From Patiriisocius marinistellae (GTDB taxonomy: Bacteria > Bacteroidota > Bacteroidia > Flavobacteriales > Flavobacteriaceae), in the NCBI RefSeq assembly GCF_009014635.1, contig NZ_BKCF01000001.1, positions 620,001-684,000 of the forward strand: a stretch of DNA of 64,000 nt, in the 5' to 3' direction. The notes under the pieces are model-generated. The model was not told the DNA's origin. It worked only from the letters and a program-made list of their open reading frames with translations, and made no database searches. Made by a program: the position numbers and the translations under genes. Each line of letters starts with the position of its first letter. Within the stretch, counting starts at the first letter, position 1. Shown here piece by piece: positions 21,025 through 31,310 of this stretch.

Positions 21025-21654
21025 TTAAGATACAGAAACTACTTCTCCATCTACTAAGACAAATATTTCATCGTCCTTTGTTGGTTCTAAAATGTATTTA
21101 CCTGTGAAATTTCCGAAAGCAGGAAAAATAAGTTGATTTTTGGTTTTAAAAAAGCATGCAAATTTCATTGTCTGTCTTCCCAGTCCTTGCATTCTTACTC
21201 CGGGATGAATATGTCCACAAAAATTAAAAAATGCATCTCGTTTTGTGGGATGGTGTGTAAGCAAAAAAGAATCGATAATAAGTTCGTCTTCAATTTGTAC
21301 TCCTAAATCTTTGAAAAGGTATTTAGGAATGACATCGTGATTGCCATTAACTAAAATAATTTGTGCATTTGTATATTGCGTCCAACTTGCAAAATCTTCC
21401 CATTCAGTATTTAATTTACTATGAAATAAATCTCCTAAGAAACATATGTTTTTAGGTCGAAACTCATCTACAGTATTAGTGAGTCTTTCTAAATTTTCAT
21501 GGGCAACATGCGCAGGAATTGCAGCACCATGTTTTCTGAAATGTGCCACCTTTCCTAAATGTACATCTGCAATTAATAACATAGACTGTTCCTGCCAGAA
21601 AATAGCACCACTTTTGTGCAGATCAAATGTATTATTATGAATCTTAACAACCAC
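21025..21654 (-). CDS. pdeM: Ligase-associated DNA repair endonuclease/phosphoesterase PdeM
   Basis: A 209-residue calcineurin-like metallophosphoesterase, the phosphodiesterase member of the ligase-associated four-gene set. Metal-binding motifs are visible in order: LLIADVHLGK (D-x-H), CFLGDLFHS (G-D), LVNGNHDVIP (G-N-H-D), TH-H in LLTHHPTK and GHIHPG (G-H-x-H). The start is GTG at 21654, overlapping the helicase stop by one base (TAGTG), so translation is coupled. It is the last gene of the operon. Confidence 0.92.
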   Translation of the reverse strand: MVVKIHNNTFDLHKSGAIFWQEQSMLLIADVHLGKVAHFRKHGAAIPAHVAHENLERLTNTVDEFRPKNICFLGDLFHSKLNTEWEDFASWTQYTNAQIILVNGNHDVIPKYLFKDLGVQIEDELIIDSFLLTHHPTKRDAFFNFCGHIHPGVRMQGLGRQTMKFACFFKTKNQLIFPAFGNFTGKYILEPTKDDEIFVLVDGEVVSVS

Positions 21655-24158
21655 TATTTCATCAATTTTAAAGTCATACGTTTAATTCTATCTTTCAATT
21701 TTTCTGAAGAAAGTTTTTCTCGCAATCTATCTGTTATAATGGGAAAACTAAACGGGGTGGCGTCTTCGCATTGTTTCCAAACAATGGTTTGTTTAGCAAT
21801 TCTTTCAAGTGCTAATTGTAAACGGCCCTCTTCCATTTCATGTTCAAAAGTTTCTCTAAAAGCCTGCTGGTATAATAAATTATCTGGTTCATAATCTCTA
21901 AACACATCAAACAACAATTGCGAGTTACTTTGTAGATGTTTAGTTTTTATTTGTTTACTTGGATACCCTGTAAAAACCATCCCGCTAATTACTGCAATAT
22001 CTCTAAATTTTCTTCTTGCGAGCTCTGTACTATTTAAACTTTTTTGAAGATCGTCAAATAAATATTCAGTACTAAAAAGATTGTTGTCAATTACATTTTG
22101 AATGTCTAATGGCTGGTCGCTTAAAAGTTCAAAACCATAGTCATTGTAGGCAAGTGAAAATGTTATGGGACTTAATAAACTTATTCTATATGCTAATAAT
22201 CCCCCCATAGCCATATGGACAAAGCGACCTTCGAAAGGATAAAACACATTGTGATACCCTTCTCTGGTTTTAAAAGTTTCTATTAAAAACTCATTATTCC
22301 CTGGTACAATACTTTCTAATTCTTGGCGGTCAAAAATATCACTGAGTGCTTTTAATTCTGGTGTGTTACGTTTATGGTCTGCTTCGCTTTGTAATTCGTT
22401 TCTTAAAATTTCACTCATTTGCGAAGATAGCGCCATTCTACCTCCCATAAAACTCACAATATTTCTTGTTTTTTTAGAGCTGCGGCGCACTTGTGCAGCC
22501 ATGTTTCGTAATCGCACTAATTCTAACGTTCTTCCAGCAAACACAAATGTGTCACCGGGTTTCATTTTGCCAATAAAGAACTCTTCAATTGTCCCTATAA
22601 AACCTCCAGAAACATATTTAACCTGTACCATCGCATCACTCACTATTGTGCCAATTGATAATCTGTGCATCATCGCCGTTTGCCTACTATCAACATAAAA
22701 CCTACCGTCATCATCAACTAAAACTCTTTTGTATTCATCATAGGCTTGGAGGCTTTGACTGCCCAGTGTTATAAAATTTAGACACCATTGCCATTGCTCT
22801 TCAGTGATGCCTTGAAAACAAAACGTAGCCTTAATTTCTGGAAATATTTTCTTCGGAAAAAAGCCATCGCTCACTGCTAATGTTACCAAGTACTGTATTA
22901 AAACATCAAAACTTAACAAATATGGAATTCTATCTTCCATTACTTCTCCCTTCACCGCTTTTTTTAAAGCCGAAGCTTCAATCAACTCCATAGCATGTGT
23001 AGGTAAAAAATGTATTACCGAAGGTTCACCTGGACGGTGGTTACTGCGTCCAGCACGTTGTAAAAACTTTGCAATCCCTTTAGGTCCGCCTATTTGTATA
23101 ATAGTTTCTACTGGTGCAAAATCAACACCTAAATCCAAACTTGATGTGGCAACAACAGCTTTTAAAGATTCATTTCTAATAGCTTGTTCTACCCACAAAC
23201 GTGTTTCTTTATTAATACTTCCGTGGTGCATTGCTATCTCTCCAGCAAACTCTGGATATTTTTCAAGTATTTTTTGAAACCAAATTTCGCATTGACTTCT
23301 CGTATTTGTGAAAATTATTGTGGTCTTGCTCTTATTTAGGATAGGTATAATTTGATCAAGAAGGTGCAATCCTAAATGTCCTCGCCAAGGAAATGTTTCC
23401 ATTTTTTTAGGAATAATAGACTTAACAACAATTTTCTTTTTGAGATTGGCTTTAATTAATATTGAATTTGCACTGCCTTCAAAATCTTTTATTTCATTGT
23501 CTTTGACTGCACTTAGGCTGTTATCATTGCTGGCACCTAACAATACATCTTGAGCTTGCTCAAGATTTCCAATAGTTGCCGAAATCCCCCAGATTCTCAT
23601 TTGAGGTGATACAGTTTTTAAACGTGAAAGTGCCAGTTCCATTTGTACACCACGTTTGCTTCCCAATAATTCGTGCCATTCATCAACAACAACGGCTGTT
23701 AAGGTTTTAAAAATCTTATCATACCCCTTTGAAGCAAGTAATAGCATTAAACTCTCTGGAGTTGTGATGAGCAAATCTGGCATATTTTTTTTTTGCTTTG
23801 CACGTTCACTTTGGCTTGTATCCCCCGTGCGAATCCCTACGGTCATACCAGTTTCTAAATCATCTGCAAAACGTTGTGCGGCTTGTTTAATCTCAACCGA
23901 AAGTGCTCGCAGTGGAGTTATCCAGATTGCCTTTATCCCTTTAGTGTGTTTTGTTTTATAGTCAGGATTGTCTTTAATGTATTGTAGTACAATAGGTGTC
24001 CACAACGCATAGGTTTTACCGCTTCCTGTAGGAGCATTTAATAAGCCATTTTTGCCATCAAGAAATGCATTCCATGTTTTCTTCTGAAAAGGGAAAGGTT
24101 TCCAGCCTTTAGTTTCAAACCAAGAATCTGCTATAGAAGTAAGCTGAGAATTTTTCAT
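21654..24158 (-). CDS. Ligase-associated DEXH-box DNA helicase (Lhr-Core type)
   Basis: An 834-residue superfamily 2 helicase. Walker A is NAPTGSGKTYALW near residue 40; the DEXH motif appears as VVVDEWHELLG; motif III is SATIG; motif VI is LQRAGRSNHRPGE. The C-terminal half (about 400-834) is the winged-helix plus Lhr-core region typical of this set. In Pseudomonas the homologous Lhr-Core protein is a 3'-to-5' DNA-dependent helicase encoded with the ligase, exonuclease and phosphoesterase. The start overlaps the ligase stop by four bases (ATGA). A near-copy of the dispersed motif (CTTCGGAAA) is at 22851-22859. Confidence 0.95.
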   Translation of the reverse strand: MKNSQLTSIADSWFETKGWKPFPFQKKTWNAFLDGKNGLLNAPTGSGKTYALWTPIVLQYIKDNPDYKTKHTKGIKAIWITPLRALSVEIKQAAQRFADDLETGMTVGIRTGDTSQSERAKQKKNMPDLLITTPESLMLLLASKGYDKIFKTLTAVVVDEWHELLGSKRGVQMELALSRLKTVSPQMRIWGISATIGNLEQAQDVLLGASNDNSLSAVKDNEIKDFEGSANSILIKANLKKKIVVKSIIPKKMETFPWRGHLGLHLLDQIIPILNKSKTTIIFTNTRSQCEIWFQKILEKYPEFAGEIAMHHGSINKETRLWVEQAIRNESLKAVVATSSLDLGVDFAPVETIIQIGGPKGIAKFLQRAGRSNHRPGEPSVIHFLPTHAMELIEASALKKAVKGEVMEDRIPYLLSFDVLIQYLVTLAVSDGFFPKKIFPEIKATFCFQGITEEQWQWCLNFITLGSQSLQAYDEYKRVLVDDDGRFYVDSRQTAMMHRLSIGTIVSDAMVQVKYVSGGFIGTIEEFFIGKMKPGDTFVFAGRTLELVRLRNMAAQVRRSSKKTRNIVSFMGGRMALSSQMSEILRNELQSEADHKRNTPELKALSDIFDRQELESIVPGNNEFLIETFKTREGYHNVFYPFEGRFVHMAMGGLLAYRISLLSPITFSLAYNDYGFELLSDQPLDIQNVIDNNLFSTEYLFDDLQKSLNSTELARRKFRDIAVISGMVFTGYPSKQIKTKHLQSNSQLLFDVFRDYEPDNLLYQQAFRETFEHEMEEGRLQLALERIAKQTIVWKQCEDATPFSFPIITDRLREKLSSEKLKDRIKRMTLKLMK

Positions 24159-25753
24159 TTAGGTATCATCGCTTTTAAATCCTCAAGCGTATTTGCTTCC
24201 TCCATAGGCTTGTCTTGTCGCCATCTTAAAATTCTAGGAAATCTTGTAGCGATACCACTTTTATGCCTGCTACTTTCTGCAATTCCTTCAAAGGCTATTT
24301 CAAAAACATGATGTGGTGTCACGCTACGAACCGGACCAAAACGTTCGAGTGTATTTTTCTTAATCCACGCATCTACTTTTCTAAACTCTGCATCTGTTAA
24401 TCCGGAGTATGCTTTTGCAAATGTTACAAGTTCTCCGTCGTTCCATAGCCCAAAGGTGTAATCTGTAAATAAATTTGAACGTCGCCCGTGTCCTCGCATG
24501 GCATACGTTAAAACGGCATCAATTGTAAATGGATCTGTTTTCCATTTCCACCAATCTCCTTTTTTCCTTCCTACTAAATATGGCGAATCTTTACGTTTTA
24601 ACATTAGTCCTTCACTGTGTTTCTCTCTCGAAATTTCGCGTTCTGCAGCTGCATCTTCCCAGTTTTCAAATTTCATAGTAGCGCTGAGGTATAAGCCTAT
24701 TTCATCACAATCACATTCTGAAATTAATTTGTCTAAAATCTTCCTTCTTTCTAAAAAGGGATGTTGTCTAATATCTTTTCCTTCCCATTCAAGAATGTCA
24801 TACGCATTTAAAATAACAGGCGTTTTTTTTAGTAATGCTTTGGAAATATTTTTCCTTCCTATTCTAGTCTGCAACTCATTAAAGTTTCCAATTGTCCCAT
24901 TTCCGAAGGGAAGAATCTCACCATCCAATACAGTTCCATTAGGTATTTTAGAAAGGAAACGTTGAAATTCTGGGTATTTGTCTGTGACTAATTCTTCTCC
25001 TCTTGACCATACAAAGACCTCATCATTTCTAATGATTACTTGACTTCGAATTCCATCCCACTTGTGCTCAAAACTCCAATCATTTATATCGCCTAAGTCA
25101 TTTTGAAAGTTATCTTCAACGGCATAAGCGAGATAGAATGGGTATGGCTTACTGAGGTAATCCTCCTCAATTGTTTCTAAAATTAATTTTGTATAAGTCG
25201 TGGTTAAAGGCGTCCAATCGCCCATAAGTTTATATGCTAGAATATCTTCATCAATGTCTGTAGCTTTTGAAAGTGCCCGAGTCATCAATTTTTGACTGAC
25301 CCCAATGCGGAACCCTCCGGTAATTATCTTGTTAAAAACAAATCGTTCAAAATAATTGAGTTGCATCCAGTTGGTTTGTAAATATTCTTTTTTGTCTTCT
25401 TCTGGAAGTGCTTTGAGGGCGATAATTTCATTGATGTATTGCGTCAATGATTTTGTGCTACTTTCTATATTTTCTTTATTAGGGAGAATTAACGCAATGG
25501 TTTCTGCAAGGTCGCCTACAATGTGATAACTTTCTTCAAATAGCCATAAAGGAACACCACTAATCTCTGTTGCCCATAGCCTTAAAAGAGTTGTGTTTAC
25601 AGGTCGTTTAGGTCTTCTGTGCGATAATATAGCAATAGTCCATAATTTGTCATCGTCGTCTGCACTTTTTAAATATTGAGTGAGTGCTGCGACTTTCTCC
25701 GTAGTTTTATTTGTTGTATCAAGCTTTTTTATGAGTTGTGCAAAATCTTTCAT
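24155..25753 (-). CDS. ATP-dependent DNA ligase (ligase-associated repair set)
   Basis: A 532-residue ATP-dependent DNA ligase of the type linked to cisplatin/DNA-damage response, distinct from the NAD-dependent housekeeping LigA. The adenylated Lys lies in motif I FEHKWDGIRSQ near residue 230, with motif III as LNAYDILEWEGKDIR, motif IV in HSEGLMLKRKDSPY and motif V in WWKWK. The N-terminal 200 residues form the DNA-binding domain. It overlaps the genes on both sides by four bases (ATGA). One exact dispersed 10-mer is at 24899-24908, in a Pro-Phe-Gly-Asn-Gly stretch. Confidence 0.95.
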   Translation of the reverse strand: MKDFAQLIKKLDTTNKTTEKVAALTQYLKSADDDDKLWTIAILSHRRPKRPVNTTLLRLWATEISGVPLWLFEESYHIVGDLAETIALILPNKENIESSTKSLTQYINEIIALKALPEEDKKEYLQTNWMQLNYFERFVFNKIITGGFRIGVSQKLMTRALSKATDIDEDILAYKLMGDWTPLTTTYTKLILETIEEDYLSKPYPFYLAYAVEDNFQNDLGDINDWSFEHKWDGIRSQVIIRNDEVFVWSRGEELVTDKYPEFQRFLSKIPNGTVLDGEILPFGNGTIGNFNELQTRIGRKNISKALLKKTPVILNAYDILEWEGKDIRQHPFLERRKILDKLISECDCDEIGLYLSATMKFENWEDAAAEREISREKHSEGLMLKRKDSPYLVGRKKGDWWKWKTDPFTIDAVLTYAMRGHGRRSNLFTDYTFGLWNDGELVTFAKAYSGLTDAEFRKVDAWIKKNTLERFGPVRSVTPHHVFEIAFEGIAESSRHKSGIATRFPRILRWRQDKPMEEANTLEDLKAMIPK

Positions 25754-26781
25754 GCTTCGTCTTCCTTTTCTTTTTTAGATTCTAATTCGCCTTGTTCTCC
25801 TTCATATTGTGTTTTTTCGGTGCGTGCATCTAGGCCCATTTCTTCGCGGAGATATCTTGAGAAAATATCTGTATACCCATGGGTGGCGATTACTTTTTGT
25901 GCTCCAGTAGCTTTTACAGTTTCTAATAATCCATCCCAATCTGCATGGTCACTGAGGACAAATCCACGGTCGATGGCGCGTCTTCTTCTCGCTCCTCTAA
26001 ATGTCATCCAGCCACTTGCGCTTGCTGTAACATAAGGGACCATTTTGCGTATCCAAGTGCCACCATGGGCACTAGGTGGTGCGATTACAATATTACCAAG
26101 CAATTCTTTTTTTGTGGTCTCCCTTGTAATGCGTATTGTTTGATGGAAATCATAATTTTCTCGCAATACTTGTGTCATATTTTCAATTGCTCCGTGCGTG
26201 TATATCTTTCCAATTGATGGGTCAATGTGTTTTAATAATCGTTGAGCTTTTCCTAAAGAATATCCAAAGATGATGGATGTTTTATTTTCTGTTTGGTTTG
26301 CAGCCCACCAATTATTAATGTCTTCAAAAACTTGTTTTTGAGGCGTCCATTTAAACGCTGGTAACCCAAAAGTACACTCGGTAATAAATGTGTTACATTT
26401 TATTAACTCAAAAGGCTCGGCAATACCATCATTTTCGGTTTTAAAATCTCCTGTGAATACCCAAACTTCTCCTTTGTATTCAACTCTTACTTGGCTTGAA
26501 GCGACAATATGACCGGCTGGGTGTAAACTAAATTTTACGCCATTTATGGTAAATGTTTCGCCCCATTCTTTTCCTGCTACAGTGATGTCTCCCAGTCTGT
26601 GTTTTATGATGGGTACATTGTTATGATGTGTAATATATTGTTTATGTCCCCAACGACTGTGGTCTGCATGCCCATGCGTGATAATACATTTATCGACAGG
26701 CTTCCACGCGTCAATATATACATCTGCTTCTTTGCAATAAATACCTTTAGTATTGAAGATGAGTAATGGGTGTTTTGGCAT
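25750..26781 (-). CDS. Ligase-associated DNA repair exonuclease (metallo-beta-lactamase fold)
   Basis: A 343-residue metallo-beta-lactamase/beta-CASP nuclease. The zinc site is HGHADHSRWG at residues 35-44 (H-x-H-x-D-H), with later ligands in HPAGHI, FTGDFK and FVLSDHADWDGLL. It belongs with the Exo protein of the four-gene set, which resects DNA ends. It is the first gene of the operon; 250 bases separate it from the divergent TerB-like gene, and this gap holds three copies of the dispersed 10-mer. The C-terminus is highly charged (ESKKEKEDEA). Confidence 0.95.
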   Translation of the reverse strand: MPKHPLLIFNTKGIYCKEADVYIDAWKPVDKCIITHGHADHSRWGHKQYITHHNNVPIIKHRLGDITVAGKEWGETFTINGVKFSLHPAGHIVASSQVRVEYKGEVWVFTGDFKTENDGIAEPFELIKCNTFITECTFGLPAFKWTPQKQVFEDINNWWAANQTENKTSIIFGYSLGKAQRLLKHIDPSIGKIYTHGAIENMTQVLRENYDFHQTIRITRETTKKELLGNIVIAPPSAHGGTWIRKMVPYVTASASGWMTFRGARRRRAIDRGFVLSDHADWDGLLETVKATGAQKVIATHGYTDIFSRYLREEMGLDARTEKTQYEGEQGELESKKEKEDEA

Positions 26782-26992: not shown

Positions 26993-27007
26993 ATTTGATA
27001 CTTAAAT

Positions 27008-27015
27008 TATATTTG
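27008..27015 (+). promoter_or_regulatory. Promoter -7 box for TerB-like gene
   Basis: TATATTTG matches the Bacteroidota -7 consensus TAnnTTTG and is 18 bases upstream of the ATG at 27034. The expected -33 position overlaps the dispersed 10-mer at 26983-26992 rather than a TTTG. Confidence 0.5.
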
Positions 27016-27033
27016 CATCAAAATATTTATACT

Positions 27034-27459
27034 ATGTCTTTTACAGGATTATTTGAGAGTGGAGAACACAAGCGTAACTTAGGGCATTTTGCATCTATTG
27101 CAAATATGGCTGCTGTTGATGGTGAGTTGAATGCTGAGGAGGAGAAAATGCTACGTCGTTTTGCTCGTAAGCTTGATATCGATGAGTCTGAATATGAAGA
27201 GGTGTTGAAAAACCCTACAAAATATCCAATCAACCCACCAAATGATGCTGATCGTCGTCTTGAGCGTATGCATGATTTATTTGAGATGATTTTTGCGGAT
27301 CATGAGATTGATGATCATGAGCGTTTTTTAATCGAAAAATATGCTATAGGGTTAGGCTATACTGCTGAGTTAGCTTCTAAATTGATTAAGCGTTCTGTTG
27401 AAATCTATCAAGGTGGACTAGATCTTGATGATTACCGCTATTTACTTAACAGAAAATAG
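27034..27459 (+). CDS. TerB-like (tellurite-resistance/DjlA-N) domain protein
   Basis: A 141-residue helical protein of the TerB-like family, seen as IANMAAVDGELNAEEEKMLRRFARKL followed by a second half-repeat MIFADHEIDDHERFLIEKYAIGLGY. The paired acidic segments (VDGELNAEE and ADHEIDDHE) are the metal-binding sites of TerB-like domains. I start at the ATG before SFTGLFESGEHKRN; the longer frame from 26995 covers the promoter. TerB proteins are linked to stress and envelope sensing; the exact role here is unknown. It is divergent from the DNA-repair operon and converges on the hybrid kinase with a 3-base gap. Confidence 0.85.
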   Translation: MSFTGLFESGEHKRNLGHFASIANMAAVDGELNAEEEKMLRRFARKLDIDESEYEEVLKNPTKYPINPPNDADRRLERMHDLFEMIFADHEIDDHERFLIEKYAIGLGYTAELASKLIKRSVEIYQGGLDLDDYRYLLNRK

Positions 27460-27462
27460 TTG

Positions 27463-28968
27463 TTAAAGCTCCTTTAGAATTTTGAATAAGTCTTTTTTAG
27501 AATATGGCTTGGCTAGAAATGCGCTTGCTCCAGATTCTAAAATATCATATCTTTCATTAATCATTGTATTGCCAGTGGCAACTATTACTGGAACTTTATT
27601 GACACTCTCTTTTGCGTGATTATTTATATAGTCAATAAGTGATTGTGCATTCATATCCTCTAATTGAGATTTGAGTATAACTGCGGCATAGTTTTTTTTA
27701 TTTAAAAGTTCTTTTGCTTGTGTGCCGTTTTTTGCAAGTTCAAGTATAAATCCTTCATCGTTCTCTAAAAACTGTTTCATAAGTAACATTTGACTAGTTT
27801 GATCTTCTTCAATAGCTAGTATTTTTTTACTTATAACGAGGCCGGACCCTTTAGGGACTGTCTTTTTTCTATCATTCTTTTCTCTTGTCTTGAATGGGAG
27901 TACAACGGTAAATATTGATCCTTTGTTTTCAGTACTTTTTACGGTGACATTGCCACCCATTTTTATTGATAAGTCTTTGACTATCTTTAGACCTAGTCCT
28001 TGACCTATGGGTTTAATTTTTGATAATTGAAGCTGGGAGTAAGATTCAAAAACCTCTTTTATTTTATTTTTAGGAATACCTGTTCCTGTATCTTTAATTT
28101 CAAAAGCAATCTCAGCAGTTTTATCTAGATTTTTGATTAATAAAACGTTGATTTCAATAATACCTTCCTTAGTATTAAGGAAAGCATTTTCTAGAAGATT
28201 GTAAAATATTTGGTTTAATCTAGTGGGGTCACCTATTAATTTTTGAGGTACTTTCTTATCGAGGTTATAAATTAATTCAATCGAAGAGTCTCTGTATTTT
28301 GTTTGGAAATGCTTTGCAATATTAACGACGATTTGAATGAGATTAAACGGGATCTGTTTTAACTCTAATGCGCCTGTTTCTATTTTAGAAATATCCAGTA
28401 AATCATCCATTAAAAATTTAATATGTAGTCCAGTTTTGTTGATGACATTTACATATTCTTTTTGCTGGAAATCAAGATTTGTATCCATTAAAACATCTAC
28501 AAAACCTAATAAATTATTTAAAGGATTGCGCACTTCGTGATTTAAATGTGACAGGAAATTATTTTTAAAAACCTCTTTGGCGTATAATAATTTTCCTTCA
28601 AACGAAAGTCTGTTTTTCTCTATTTGAGCTTCGTTTTTTTCTTGAACAAGAGGGTGGGCTTCAGTATAATGTTCTGTGAAATCAATTAATAGCACATAGA
28701 TAGCGCTTTCTTTTTTAAAGACATCAATATCAAAAATGTAATCTTTATTATTAGTATTGATATTAACGCATGGGTATTTTATAGTTTCAAAATTGTCAGT
28801 TAATACATGTTCCAAAGAATAAAAGAATGGGTCTATGTCTGTTAAACTTTTTCCAATTTCAATATTACATATAGTGTTATCACTAGCTTTAATTGTAGTG
28901 CTTGAGTCTATTTGTAAAATTTGGATTTTTTGACTTACTAAGCTATTTTTTATTTCTTGCAGACTCAT
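27463..28968 (-). CDS. Hybrid sensor histidine kinase with degenerate receiver domain
   Basis: A 501-residue cytoplasmic kinase with no membrane segment. Residues 1-110 form a PAS-like sensory region that resembles the separate protein at 29563-29931. A HisKA domain follows with the phospho-acceptor His144 in HLNHEVRNPLNN, then a HATPase_c domain (N box YNLLENAF, G1 IKDTGTGIP, G2 GQGLGLKIVKD) at about 240-370. Residues about 385-501 have a receiver fold with the conserved Lys (FLAKPYSKKDL), but the position of the phospho-acceptor Asp is Lys (AVILKSQLEDMNA) and the acidic pocket is EED. This suggests a pseudo-receiver used for protein contact. The start overlaps the stop of the GTPase gene by four bases (ATGA), so the two are coupled. 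Confidence 0.9.
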   Translation of the reverse strand: MSLQEIKNSLVSQKIQILQIDSSTTIKASDNTICNIEIGKSLTDIDPFFYSLEHVLTDNFETIKYPCVNINTNNKDYIFDIDVFKKESAIYVLLIDFTEHYTEAHPLVQEKNEAQIEKNRLSFEGKLLYAKEVFKNNFLSHLNHEVRNPLNNLLGFVDVLMDTNLDFQQKEYVNVINKTGLHIKFLMDDLLDISKIETGALELKQIPFNLIQIVVNIAKHFQTKYRDSSIELIYNLDKKVPQKLIGDPTRLNQIFYNLLENAFLNTKEGIIEINVLLIKNLDKTAEIAFEIKDTGTGIPKNKIKEVFESYSQLQLSKIKPIGQGLGLKIVKDLSIKMGGNVTVKSTENKGSIFTVVLPFKTREKNDRKKTVPKGSGLVISKKILAIEEDQTSQMLLMKQFLENDEGFILELAKNGTQAKELLNKKNYAAVILKSQLEDMNAQSLIDYINNHAKESVNKVPVIVATGNTMINERYDILESGASAFLAKPYSKKDLFKILKEL

Positions 28969-29456
28969 ATTGCTAACATTTTTCTAGTAAGTTGCTCAAA
29001 GGCATCTTCGACATTATCTCCTTCTTTTGCGCTTGTAAATGTGCAATTTTCAAAACGTTGTGTTTTAAAAAATTCTTCGGAAACTGCTTCGCCAAATTTA
29101 TCTTTCTTATTTCCAACTATTTCAACTGGGACATTTTCAAAATTATCTTGAAGATACTTCATTTCGGTTTCTAAAGATTCAAAAGTTTCTGGTCTAGATA
29201 TGTCAAAGACATAAATAAACCCGCTTGTGCCGAGCAAGTATGACTTTCTGGCTTTATCGATTGAAGTGTTTCCTTCAATGTCCCATATTACTAAGGTGAT
29301 ATTATTTCCATCGATGGAAATCTCTTTCTTTTTTACGTGTACACCAACGGTAACTAAATAATCTTCACTGAATTGAGATTCAACAAACCTTCTTATTAGA
29401 CTTGTTTTCCCAACTCCGAAATGACCTAGCAGGACGATTTTTTTTGGATGTGCCAT
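28965..29456 (-). CDS. Ras/Rab-like small GTPase
   Basis: A 163-residue stand-alone small GTPase of the Ras superfamily. Nucleotide-binding motifs: P-loop GHFGVGKTSL (residues 11-20), switch I Thr36 in LVTVGVHV, G3 as Asp59-Ile-Glu-Gly62, G4 NKKD (116-119) and G5 TSAKEG. The residue equivalent to catalytic Gln61 of Ras is Asn63, so intrinsic hydrolysis may be slow or need a partner. Proteins of this type in bacteria (for example MglA) act as switches with roadblock-domain partners. The gene lies downstream of a roadblock-like and a coiled-coil gene and is coupled to a histidine kinase, which points to a signalling role. A near-copy of the dispersed motif is at 29075-29083. Confidence 0.92.
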   Translation of the reverse strand: MAHPKKIVLLGHFGVGKTSLIRRFVESQFSEDYLVTVGVHVKKKEISIDGNNITLVIWDIEGNTSIDKARKSYLLGTSGFIYVFDISRPETFESLETEMKYLQDNFENVPVEIVGNKKDKFGEAVSEEFFKTQRFENCTFTSAKEGDNVEDAFEQLTRKMLAI

Positions 29457-29562
29457 TGCGTATATTTAATTAAAGATAAATATACTATTATTAAGTAAAA
29501 TTTAATGGTCAAAATGCGGTATAACTAAATTATGATTCAATAATTTATTCGGTTTTATGAGT

Positions 29563-29931
29563 TTAACTTTTTTTATTGCCCAACTGTCTTTTAATCTCTT
29601 TCTCGTTACGAGATTGTGTTGCTTGTTGTTTAGAAATATAAGCGCTTGTGAAATTAAAGAAAATAATAGATATAAAATTAACTTCCTTTTTTATTGTAAT
29701 ATCACAAAAAACTTGAGTGCTATTCTGCGTAATATTTAAACCGGGATAGGCCATTATTTTTTCTTCTTGGCTTAACAATTGAGGTATAGAAGAAATGAAA
29801 ATGGGGTGAAAATCATTTATGTTTGATCCAAGGTTAACTTTAAATAGCGTATCGTTAGAGCTTAAAACAATACCGTTAAAATCAACTGTAATGTGATGCA
29901 GGATATTCTGAAAAATCAAATTTTGATCCAT
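29563..29931 (-). CDS. Short PAS-like protein related to the kinase sensor region
   Basis: A 122-residue soluble protein starting at the ATG before DQNLIFQN; the longer frame from 29949 adds six residues. It resembles the first 120 residues of the hybrid kinase at 27463-28968 in layout and in places in sequence: a Ser-rich turn with an Asn-x-Asp/Thr pair, then NDFHP(I/F)F against DIDPFF, then AYPGLNIT against KYPCVNIN, followed by FCDITIKKE against IFDIDVFKKE. It ends in a charged coiled tail. This looks like a PAS-like sensor module present once alone and once fused. It lies between the roadblock-like gene (166 bases upstream) and the GTPase gene (106 bases downstream). Confidence 0.75.
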   Translation of the reverse strand: MDQNLIFQNILHHITVDFNGIVLSSNDTLFKVNLGSNINDFHPIFISSIPQLLSQEEKIMAYPGLNITQNSTQVFCDITIKKEVNFISIIFFNFTSAYISKQQATQSRNEKEIKRQLGNKKS

Positions 29932-30097
29932 AATATTAAAACAAATCACAATAGGGTAATCTATTTCTTACAAATAAAAGAAAAAATTAACAGATGTATT
30001 TTTAAATATTAAATTTTATAACCTTTTAATGTATTCTTTAATCGAAAAATATGTTATAGTCTTAATAAATGAGTATTCGTAAATGCATTTTAAACAA

Positions 30098-30928
30098 TTA
30101 ATATTTAATTGCCTTCCATGTTTTGAATAATGTTGTTAATATCTTATCTACTTCATTCCTAGATAAAGAATCAATTTTTGAAGAAATTTTTCTAGAAACT
30201 TTTAAAACCCTGTTTTCTAATTTATTTTCAAATGAAGAAGTCATATGGCCAGACATTACAACTGCAATATAGTATGAGTGAAAGTTATAAATATGAATAC
30301 TATATAGTTCGTAGTCAATCGATTCTAGGTTTTGATTTCCACCTCCAAAGGCATCTTCAACAAAACTTTTTATGGCAGTTAACATACCAGAAACCATGTC
30401 TTTGTCAACTTTATTGCTTACACTATAATTGCCCAGTAAAATTCCAGACCCTTTTTGAATTGCAAATATTTCATTAACAATAGGCTTGTCAAGTTCACTT
30501 AAAAGTAAATCACCTTCTTTTTGTCCTGTAAATCTTGCTATAACCTTACGTTTAAGACCTTCCATAGAGAAGGTTTTAGCCATTTTTTGATTGATGGCTT
30601 CTGAGAGTTTTTCAATTTCTGCGCCTATGTATTTTTTTATCATCTGCCCCATAATAGGGTAGAGAGCTTCAACTACTGCATCTTTAGAATTTGCAATCTC
30701 TTCTTTAAGAGTTTTAGTGATAGTAGGTCCAAGAGTTGTAGGTATTTCTTCTATAAACGTTTTAAATCTTTCGTCAAGAATAGGGTCTACTTTTTCCGAA
30801 AGCTTTTCCTTGGTATCAATAGTTTGTGTAATGGCATCAATTCGTTCATTTATGGCATTGGCAACCTGTCTGTCATCAATTAACAGAATGTCTCTAAGCA
30901 ACTGAAGTTTTTCTTCTTGCTCAACCAT
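30098..30928 (-). CDS. Roadblock-like domain protein with N-terminal coiled coil
   Basis: A 276-residue soluble protein. Residues 1-140 are helical and charged, starting LQLLRDILLIDDRQVANAINERIDAI, a segment also found at the start of some OmpA-domain proteins. Residues about 150-276 contain VNEIFAIQKGSGILLGNYS, then DMVSGMLTAIKSFVEDAFGG and a later amphipathic helix. That order is typical of a roadblock/LC7-like domain, the usual regulator partner of bacterial Ras-like GTPases. The assignment rests on pattern recognition and should be treated as likely, not certain. It lies 31 bases after the coiled-coil gene. Confidence 0.7.
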   Translation of the reverse strand: MVEQEEKLQLLRDILLIDDRQVANAINERIDAITQTIDTKEKLSEKVDPILDERFKTFIEEIPTTLGPTITKTLKEEIANSKDAVVEALYPIMGQMIKKYIGAEIEKLSEAINQKMAKTFSMEGLKRKVIARFTGQKEGDLLLSELDKPIVNEIFAIQKGSGILLGNYSVSNKVDKDMVSGMLTAIKSFVEDAFGGGNQNLESIDYELYSIHIYNFHSYYIAVVMSGHMTSSFENKLENRVLKVSRKISSKIDSLSRNEVDKILTTLFKTWKAIKY

Positions 30929-30959
30929 AACTTATTTTCTGAAATATTAAGGGTGAATT

Positions 30960-31310
30960 TTATGCGCCTATTTTTTCGCCTAATGCTATAAGCATTTTAC
31001 TTAGCTCTCTTCTGTCTACTTTTTTCTCCATAAGATCTTCTGTCTTATCGTTCATAGCATCTTCAAGGTCTGTAATTCGAATATTTACATCAGTACTTAA
31101 AGAATCAATAGATTGCATTAACTCACCTCTTACTTGGTCAATATATTCTTCTAAAGTAGCTTTCTGCTTGTCAATCTCTTTTTTGACACTGTCAAACTCA
31201 CTGTTGTATTGTTGAATGTTTTCACCAAAAATAAGATTCTTAATTGCTTCAATTTTCGAAGCAGAATCTATTGGATTAGTTGATTCTTCGGGGTTGTTTT
31301 TTTTACTCAT
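30960..31310 (-). CDS. Small coiled-coil protein
   Basis: A 116-residue protein starting at the ATG before SKKNNPEES; two further codons upstream would need a TTG start. From about residue 25 on it is a continuous heptad-rich helix (IEAIKNLIFGENIQQYNSEFDSVKKEIDKQK, then LEDAMNDKTEDLMEKKVDRRELSKMLIALGEKI), so it probably forms a coiled-coil oligomer. No enzyme motif is present. It sits between fbp and the roadblock-like gene on the same strand and may scaffold the GTPase module. Family not recognised. Confidence 0.75.
   Translation of the reverse strand: MSKKNNPEESTNPIDSASKIEAIKNLIFGENIQQYNSEFDSVKKEIDKQKATLEEYIDQVRGELMQSIDSLSTDVNIRITDLEDAMNDKTEDLMEKKVDRRELSKMLIALGEKIGA

What the first reader, a model, noticed from the sequence alone, without database searches (positions are those of the whole stretch)
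27463..31310. Ras-like GTPase signalling set: coiled coil, roadblock-like, PAS-like, GTPase, hybrid kinase
Five minus-strand genes downstream of fbp carry a coiled-coil protein, a probable roadblock-domain protein, a PAS-like protein, a stand-alone Ras-like GTPase and a cytoplasmic histidine kinase. The last two overlap by four bases. Ras-like GTPase plus roadblock partner is the MglA/MglB logic known from Myxococcus; adding a PAS-type sensor and a soluble kinase suggests a two-layer switch that I do not know to be characterised. It could control polarity, gliding or carbon metabolism (fbp is upstream).
Basis: partly seen in the sequence, partly recalled or inferred. Interest (0 to 1): 0.65.

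Follow-up and report, generated by a model that had tools for sequence, protein, structure and literature searches.

The report
Rab-like GTPase–longin–kinase operon
This is a five-gene bacterial switch in which a small GTPase resembling those of our own cells sits beside a protein predicted to carry a 'longin' domain (the kind that regulates such GTPases in animals and yeast) and a soluble signalling kinase; the gene set was described but never explained in 2014, and the longin match offers the first idea of how its GTPase is controlled.

Summary
Five minus-strand genes lie downstream of fbp, and the GTPase and kinase genes overlap by 4 bp. They are one unit: 75 of 78 loci with the stand-alone 276-aa-type protein also carry the coiled-coil, GTPase and PAS genes.
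It is not MglA/MglB. The anatomy matches the uncharacterised 'Group 1 Rup' neighbourhood of Wuichet & Søgaard-Andersen 2014: a Rab-like GTPase without the catalytic Gln, a coiled coil, an unknown domain (often followed by OmpA) and an output protein whose N-terminus has an invariant Gln.
New here: (1) the unknown domain is predicted to have a longin/roadblock superfold with longin topology; fold matches include AP-sigma, Mon1-Ccz1, TRAPP and MglB, and the only PDB profile hits are the TRAPP longin Bet5. (2) The Gln-bearing N-terminus is a PAS domain with the Gln on its exit helix. (3) The flavobacterial form lacks OmpA. (4) In the window's clade (15 genomes) the kinase's receiver has lost its Asp (Lys433) and extra PAS or GTPase–PAS genes are common.
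Mechanism (inferred): the longin protein scaffolds or loads the GTPase; Rup-GTP docks on the PAS–helix to gate the kinase. Verdict: new variant of a known kind.

The parts
30960..31310 (-). A: short cytosolic coiled-coil protein (116 aa); begins with a motif (IKNLIFG) similar to the start of protein B (LRDILL)
   Evidence: next to B in 77 of 78 stand-alone-B loci
30098..30928 (-). B: 276-aa protein, helical N-terminal half (residues 1-146) + longin-fold domain; no TM or OmpA part, unlike ~600-aa relatives elsewhere
   Evidence: AF2 and Foldseek; OmpA-fused homologues
30164..30490 (-). Longin-like domain of B (residues 147-255), topology b-b-a-b-b-b-a-a
   Evidence: profile hits TRAPP Bet5 only; hhalign to TRAPP longins 81%
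29563..29931 (-). D0: stand-alone PAS domain with exit helix (122 aa), conserved Gln106; clade-specific paralogue without output domain
   Evidence: tree; Gln position
28965..29456 (-). C: Rup-type (Rab-like) small GTPase, 163 aa; G1 GHFGVGKTS, G3 WDIEGN (Asn63 in place of the catalytic Gln, Glu61 in place of Ala), G4 NKKD, G5 SAK
   Evidence: single copy in the genome
27463..28968 (-). D1: cytosolic hybrid histidine kinase, 501 aa: PAS (residues 1-125, Gln109 on the exit helix), HisKA (His144), HATPase_c, degenerate receiver
27475..27810 (-). Pseudo-receiver domain of D1: phosphoacceptor Asp replaced by Lys433; Lys of the KP motif kept

Best explanation
The operon is a flavobacterial variant of the Group 1 Rup system: a cytosolic GTP switch that gates a histidine kinase. 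SHOWN by sequence or fold prediction: a Rab-like GTPase with intact G1, G4 and G5 motifs but no catalytic Gln; a partner (B) with a predicted longin-superfold domain on a helical stalk; a coiled-coil protein (A) whose first residues resemble those of B; a kinase (D1) whose N-terminus is a PAS domain ending in a helix with an almost invariant Gln; strict operon linkage; output domains that differ between lineages (histidine kinase, LytTR, sigma-54 activator, adenylate cyclase) while the GTPase core stays. INFERRED: B dimerises through its longin domain and, with A, forms a platform that binds the GTPase and loads it with GTP or holds it, as TRAPP or Mon1-Ccz1 longins do for Rabs. In other lineages B's TM-OmpA part would tie this platform to the cell envelope; here it is free or held by A. 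Rup-GTP then binds the PAS/exit helix of D1 and resets the helical bundle, turning the kinase on or off. The Gln of that helix may complete the GTPase active site and end the signal (proposal of Wuichet & Søgaard-Andersen). Because D1's own receiver has Lys instead of Asp, phosphate would pass to a separate receiver protein, or the receiver acts only as a regulatory domain. The PAS-only protein D0 is a left-over or competing copy of the PAS that could titrate the GTPase.
For: Group 1 Rup anatomy as published, matched gene by gene. The same A-B-GTPase-output order occurs in Mesorhizobium (OmpA protein, 'Rab family GTPase', cyclase) and Nostoc. Longin: Foldseek top 50 are longin/roadblock-superfold proteins or complexes holding one (AP sigma/mu, Mon1-Ccz1, TRAPP, Rag C-terminal domain, Ykt6, Sec22b, CPLANE, MglB). 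The domain profile hits only Bet5 among 177,635 PDB sequences at E<=10 (best E 0.031); hhalign to TRAPPC1/4 longins gives probability 81%, E 1.2e-5 over 79 columns, against 0.3% for MglB and 0.1% for the PAS alignment. Sub-threshold Pfam hits are FUZ/MON1 and INTU/CCZ1 longins. PAS fold. Gln of the PAS exit helix in 88 of 92. Linkage 75 of 78. Kinase residues kept: His 76/77, N-box Asn 76/77.
Against: The B model is moderate overall (pLDDT 74.5, pTM 0.48) and the Bet5 match is sub-significant on its own (E 0.031); the A8 comparison was chosen after seeing that hit. Longin and roadblock are close relatives, so topology rests on a predicted helix order. No GTPase-B or GTPase-PAS interaction was tested. 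Six GTPases that do have Gln in G3 still have partners with the PAS Gln, so the Gln-in-trans step gets no covariation support. The direction (on or off), the signal and the phosphate target are unknown. No rooted tree with reference Rup sequences was built.
Confidence: 0.62

Rival explanations
1. MglA/MglB-type polarity or gliding switch: B is an MglB-like roadblock GAP, the GTPase an MglA, and the output controls cell polarity or gliding.
For: B shares the roadblock/longin superfold, and MglB is among its fold matches. Conservons show that GTPase + roadblock + kinase sets exist.
Against: The GTPase keeps the G3 Asp (WD) and is closest to Rabs. The Pfam roadblock model finds nothing in B or in the whole genome, though it finds true roadblocks in other Bacteroidota. 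hhalign to MglB 0.3% against 81% for TRAPP longins, although MglB was a single sequence. Only 85 of 394 genomes of the family have the set.
Confidence: 0.1
2. B acts as the GAP and the PAS-kinase as effector only (a pure off-switch), not as a GEF or platform; the PAS Gln has a structural role.
For: Roadblock/longin domains can be GAP, GEF or scaffold (PMC10933270). The Gln is kept even where the GTPase has its own Gln.
Against: No conserved Arg- or Gln-finger candidate in B was identified; the most conserved columns of the domain (G162, L201, A222, with I157, S161, G181-I186) look like fold and interface positions.
Confidence: 0.2
3. The set regulates fructose-1,6-bisphosphatase or gluconeogenesis because it lies downstream of fbp.
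For: fbp is upstream on the same strand with a 33-147 bp gap in 47 of 77 loci.
Against: 30 of 77 loci lack fbp nearby, including those of other families; the TerB-like gene on the other side is equally syntenic (43 loci have both), so this looks like inherited gene order.
Confidence: 0.05
4. The window's copy is a decaying module: the PAS-only gene is a remnant, the receiver is dead and the kinase is losing function.
For: Receiver Asp lost in 32 of 77 kinases. Relatives show a graded series: extra GTPase + PAS with a degenerate HisKA-like stub (198-223 aa), PAS only (116-132 aa), or nothing.
Against: Kinase His, N-box, G1 and G2 boxes and all GTPase motifs are intact; A, B, GTPase and kinase are maintained across the clade; Asp loss recurs in several clades without loss of the kinase.
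Confidence: 0.12

Closest known systems
Group 1 Rup GTPase neighbourhood (Wuichet & Søgaard-Andersen 2014, PMC4316618)
   Same: Rab/Ras-like small GTPase lacking the G3 Gln; a coiled-coil gene; a gene with the 'unknown domain'; an output gene (kinase) whose N-terminus has an invariant Gln; same gene order as in Nostoc and Mesorhizobium
   Different: Here B lacks TM and OmpA; an extra PAS-only gene; a receiver without Asp; the passages read of the 2014 paper give no fold for the unknown domain or the PAS region, and the word longin does not occur in it
Actinobacterial conservons (CvnA-D)
   Same: GTPase + roadblock-superfold partner + histidine kinase in one operon, no dedicated response regulator; likely a similar logic
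   Different: Conservons use an MglA-family GTPase, an MglB roadblock, a CvnC protein and a membrane kinase; here Rup GTPase, longin-type partner, coiled coil, soluble kinase
MglA/MglB (Myxococcus, Thermus)
   Same: Small GTPase with a roadblock/longin-superfold partner
   Different: Different GTPase family (G3) and partner topology; no Pfam roadblock match
TRAPP (Bet5/TRAPPC1) and Mon1-Ccz1 longin Rab-GEFs
   Same: Longin domain paired with a Rab-type GTPase; best profile match (Bet5) and among the best fold matches of B
   Different: Eukaryotic multi-subunit heterodimers on membranes; B is one bacterial protein with a helical stalk; GEF activity untested

Membership tests
Group 1 Rup GTPase system | Small single-domain Ras-superfamily GTPase (<240 aa) with G3 Asp kept and G3 Gln absent | tested here: met
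   163 aa, WDIEGN; 87 of 93 relatives lack Gln
Group 1 Rup GTPase system | Neighbouring coiled-coil gene | tested here: met
Group 1 Rup GTPase system | Neighbour with the conserved unknown domain, often followed by TM and OmpA | tested here: met
   B matches the N-terminal part of ~600-aa OmpA-type proteins; the TM/OmpA part is absent here, which the definition ('often') allows
Group 1 Rup GTPase system | Output module (kinase or c-di-GMP enzyme) with invariant Gln in its N-terminal region | tested here: met
   Gln109 of the kinase, 88 of 92 overall; assumed to be the same Gln as in the paper's logo, which could not be viewed
Group 1 Rup GTPase system | Placement in the Group 1 clade of a GTPase tree | not tested
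MglA/MglB | MglB partner of the Pfam Robl_LC7 family | tested here: not met
   no match in B or in the genome
MglA/MglB | MglA-type G3 motif (conserved Asp replaced) | tested here: not met
   WD present in all 93 GTPases aligned
Longin domain | b-b-a-b-b-b-a-a topology | tested here: met
   AF2 model of B residues 150-273, moderate confidence
Longin domain | Significant sequence similarity to a longin family | tested here: inconclusive
   Bet5 E 0.031; Fuz_longin_1 best E 0.0012 in members, below the curated cut-off where scores were shown; hhalign 81%
Longin domain | Dimerisation and GTPase binding | not testable with these tools
   no complex prediction or assay available
Actinobacterial conservon | MglB-type roadblock CvnB and CvnC protein | tested here: not met
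   no Robl_LC7 match in the genome; no CvnC-type (DUF742) match in any of the five proteins

The most novel reading that the evidence does not exclude
Bacterial Rab-like (Rup) GTPases have a dedicated longin-domain regulator, with A-B-GTPase-output operons seen in Bacteroidota, Cyanobacteria and Alphaproteobacteria. The GTPase-longin pair known from eukaryotic Rab GEFs (TRAPP, Mon1-Ccz1) and Asgard archaea would therefore also exist in bacteria, as a plug-in switch for kinases, cyclases and transcription factors.
Probability: 0.5. Interest if true: 0.75.

Novelty: new variant of a known kind. Interest (0 to 1): 0.58.

Why it matters
Group 1 Rup GTPases are, by the 2014 analysis, close to the eukaryotic Rab/Ras/Rho/Ran group, yet in the papers held here none has been studied at the bench and no regulator is known. 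The 'unknown domain' beside them now has a predicted longin fold, giving a directly testable partner, a predicted binding mode and a bacterial counterpart to eukaryotic Rab-longin GEFs. The papers held discuss longins mainly in eukaryotes and Asgard archaea. The receiver domains that lost their Asp in several clades, and the graded stubs of extra GTPase-PAS pairs, add a natural series for studying how a GTPase takes over a kinase.

Tried and rejected
Pfam and NCBIfam for B, the coiled coil and the PAS-only protein: no family over threshold. Whole-B profile against PDB: nothing useful; only the domain-only profile reached Bet5. One-protein search of genome contigs gave just 4 relatives, so profiles against whole genomes were used instead. 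A remnant of a lost second GTPase in the 166-bp and 106-bp gaps around the PAS-only gene: none readable. Promoter scan at chance and only four terminator-like sites: not used. Gln trade-off between GTPase and PAS: not seen. Whether the second-GTPase partner (198 aa) is a kinase stub: its C-terminus matches the HisKA region without the His (hhalign 80%). Two stand-alone PAS relatives lacking the Gln helix are not near a GTPase, too few to prove the point. Literature for 'Rup GTPase' after 2014 and for bacterial longins: nothing beyond PMC4316618 in the held library; subscription journals are not covered.
Full report
WHAT IS THERE. The five minus-strand genes are real and at the stated places: coiled coil A (30960-31310), B (30098-30928), stand-alone PAS D0 (29563-29931), small GTPase C (28965-29456) and hybrid kinase D1 (27463-28968). 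C and D1 overlap by four bases (ATGA). fbp lies 61 bp upstream and a convergent TerB-like gene lies downstream. Pfam gives Ras for C (E 6.8e-34) and HisKA, HATPase_c and Response_reg for D1; A, B and D0 have no family over threshold. The whole genome has one copy each of B and C and no Pfam roadblock protein.

IT IS A CONSERVED UNIT. A profile of B finds stand-alone B proteins in 85 of 394 genomes of the window's family and B-type proteins in 15 of 392 across the phylum; outside the class the hits lie in open frames of ~600-740 aa, and the one checked (L026) ends in an OmpA domain. I read about 95 loci. Among 78 with a stand-alone B, 75 also have A, C and a D-type gene on the same strand within 4 kb. 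A search started from the PAS domain alone returned, besides the window, five loci: three are again B-C-D loci, and the other two are PAS proteins that lack the Gln-bearing helix and have no GTPase nearby.

WHAT IS ALREADY KNOWN. Wuichet & Søgaard-Andersen 2014 (PMC4316618) defined the Rup family and its Group 1: GTPases close to Rab/Ran/Ras/Rho, lacking the catalytic Gln in G3, not coupled to MglB, and encoded with a coiled-coil gene, a gene with a conserved unknown domain often followed by a membrane helix and OmpA, and an output gene (kinase or c-di-GMP enzyme) whose N-terminal region has an invariant Gln. The window's locus matches this gene by gene. The GTPase keeps G1, G4 and G5 and the G3 Asp, but has Asn63 at the Gln position; 87 of 93 relatives also lack Gln there, and most of them read WD(I/L)EG with Glu in place of the usual Ala. 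The same A-B-GTPase-output order is found in Mesorhizobium (annotated OmpA protein, 'Rab family GTPase', adenylate/guanylate cyclase) and Nostoc. No later work on these GTPases was found in the held library.

NEW 1: THE UNKNOWN DOMAIN LOOKS LIKE A LONGIN DOMAIN. AlphaFold2 of B with 67 sequences gives a long helical N-terminal half and a C-terminal domain b-b-a-b-b-b-a-a (residues 150-273; overall pLDDT 74.5, the last strands and helices near 90). The Foldseek top 50 against the PDB are longin/roadblock-superfold proteins or complexes holding one: AP sigma and mu, Mon1-Ccz1 with Ypt7 or Rab7, TRAPP Bet5/Trs23, Rag C-terminal domains, Ykt6, Sec22b, the CPLANE complex, COPI zeta, MglB. Two helices after the last strand is longin order; roadblock has one helix before the sheet (PMC10933270). 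By sequence, the domain profile hits only Bet5 in the PDB at E<=10 (two variants of the same longin; best E 0.031). hhalign to TRAPPC1/4 longins gives 81% and E 1.2e-5 over 79 columns, against 0.3% for Thermus MglB and 0.1% for the PAS alignment; the GTPase alignment gave 5.7%. The TRAPP set was chosen after the Bet5 hit and MglB was a single sequence, so the database-wide E of 0.031 is the fairer number. Weak Pfam hits in remote members are the MON1/FUZ and CCZ1/INTU longins. Three lines agree, each imperfect; I put the superfold at about 0.85 and longin topology at about 0.7.

NEW 2: THE OUTPUT'S N-TERMINUS IS A PAS DOMAIN WITH THE GLN ON ITS EXIT HELIX. D0 folds with pLDDT 90 into b-b-a-b-b-b plus a long helix; Foldseek gives PAS domains at probability 1.00. 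The Gln (106 in D0, 109 in D1) is kept in 88 of 92 sequences, and a Tyr and an Asp in 91 of 92 each. The outputs swap: kinase, LytTR (L003), sigma-54 activator (L026, L028), cyclase (Mesorhizobium). For the sigma-54 and cyclase outputs the PAS profile match is weak or absent; only a Q..N-like motif is visible by eye.

NEW 3: A FLAVOBACTERIAL, CYTOSOLIC BRANCH THAT IS CHANGING. B has no membrane or OmpA part here. In one clade of 15 genomes that includes the window, the kinase's receiver has Lys instead of the phosphate-accepting Asp (Lys433 in the window), and most members carry an extra PAS gene, eight of them together with a second GTPase. The 198-223-aa partner of that second GTPase is a PAS followed by what looks like a HisKA bundle without the His (hhalign 80%). 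The window keeps only a PAS-only protein from such extra copies; the PAS tree groups it with the PAS-only proteins of three relatives, one of which also has the 198-type. Receiver Asp loss is seen in 32 of 77 kinases and in several separate clades, while the kinase His and N-box Asn are kept in 76 of 77.

HOW IT PROBABLY WORKS. Inferred, not shown: B (with A, which starts with a similar short motif) forms a longin platform that binds or loads the GTPase. GTPase-GTP docks on the PAS/exit helix of the kinase, changing the helical bundle and hence kinase activity. The helix Gln may help end the signal, as suggested in 2014, but the six GTPases that have their own Gln still have partners with it, so this step is open. 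Phosphate must go to another receiver, or the kinase signals by conformation. Signal and target are unknown. It works like the actinobacterial conservons (GTPase + roadblock-type partner + kinase) but is not one.

CONTEXT. fbp is next to A in 47 of 77 loci, almost always together with the TerB-like gene (43), which looks like inherited order. The patchy presence in the family argues against a core gliding role.

Noticed in passing
window 21654-26781: Three minus-strand genes that read as a DEXH-box helicase, an ATP-dependent DNA ligase and a metallo-beta-lactamase-fold exonuclease: by eye the known ligase-associated DNA repair cluster.
   Followed up: no
window 26998-27459: TerB-like protein (Pfam TerB E 1.3e-8) convergent with the kinase gene; present in 46 of 77 loci examined.
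   Followed up: partly
L067, L068, L070, L072, L073, L075, L077, L078: Close relatives carry a second GTPase gene followed by a PAS + degenerate HisKA-like stub without the His, between B and the GTPase-kinase pair.
   Followed up: partly
L099, L106, L107, L110: Two full-length PAS hybrid kinases in tandem after the GTPase, one with the receiver Asp and one with Asn.
   Followed up: partly
L141:6275-6616, L142:5884-6231: Stand-alone PAS relatives that end before the Gln-bearing helix and are not near any GTPase gene.
   Followed up: partly
L003:4179-4913: In a Cyclobacteriaceae MAG the GTPase's PAS is fused to a LytTR DNA-binding domain instead of a kinase, and the GTPase-PAS pair precedes A and B.
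   Followed up: partly
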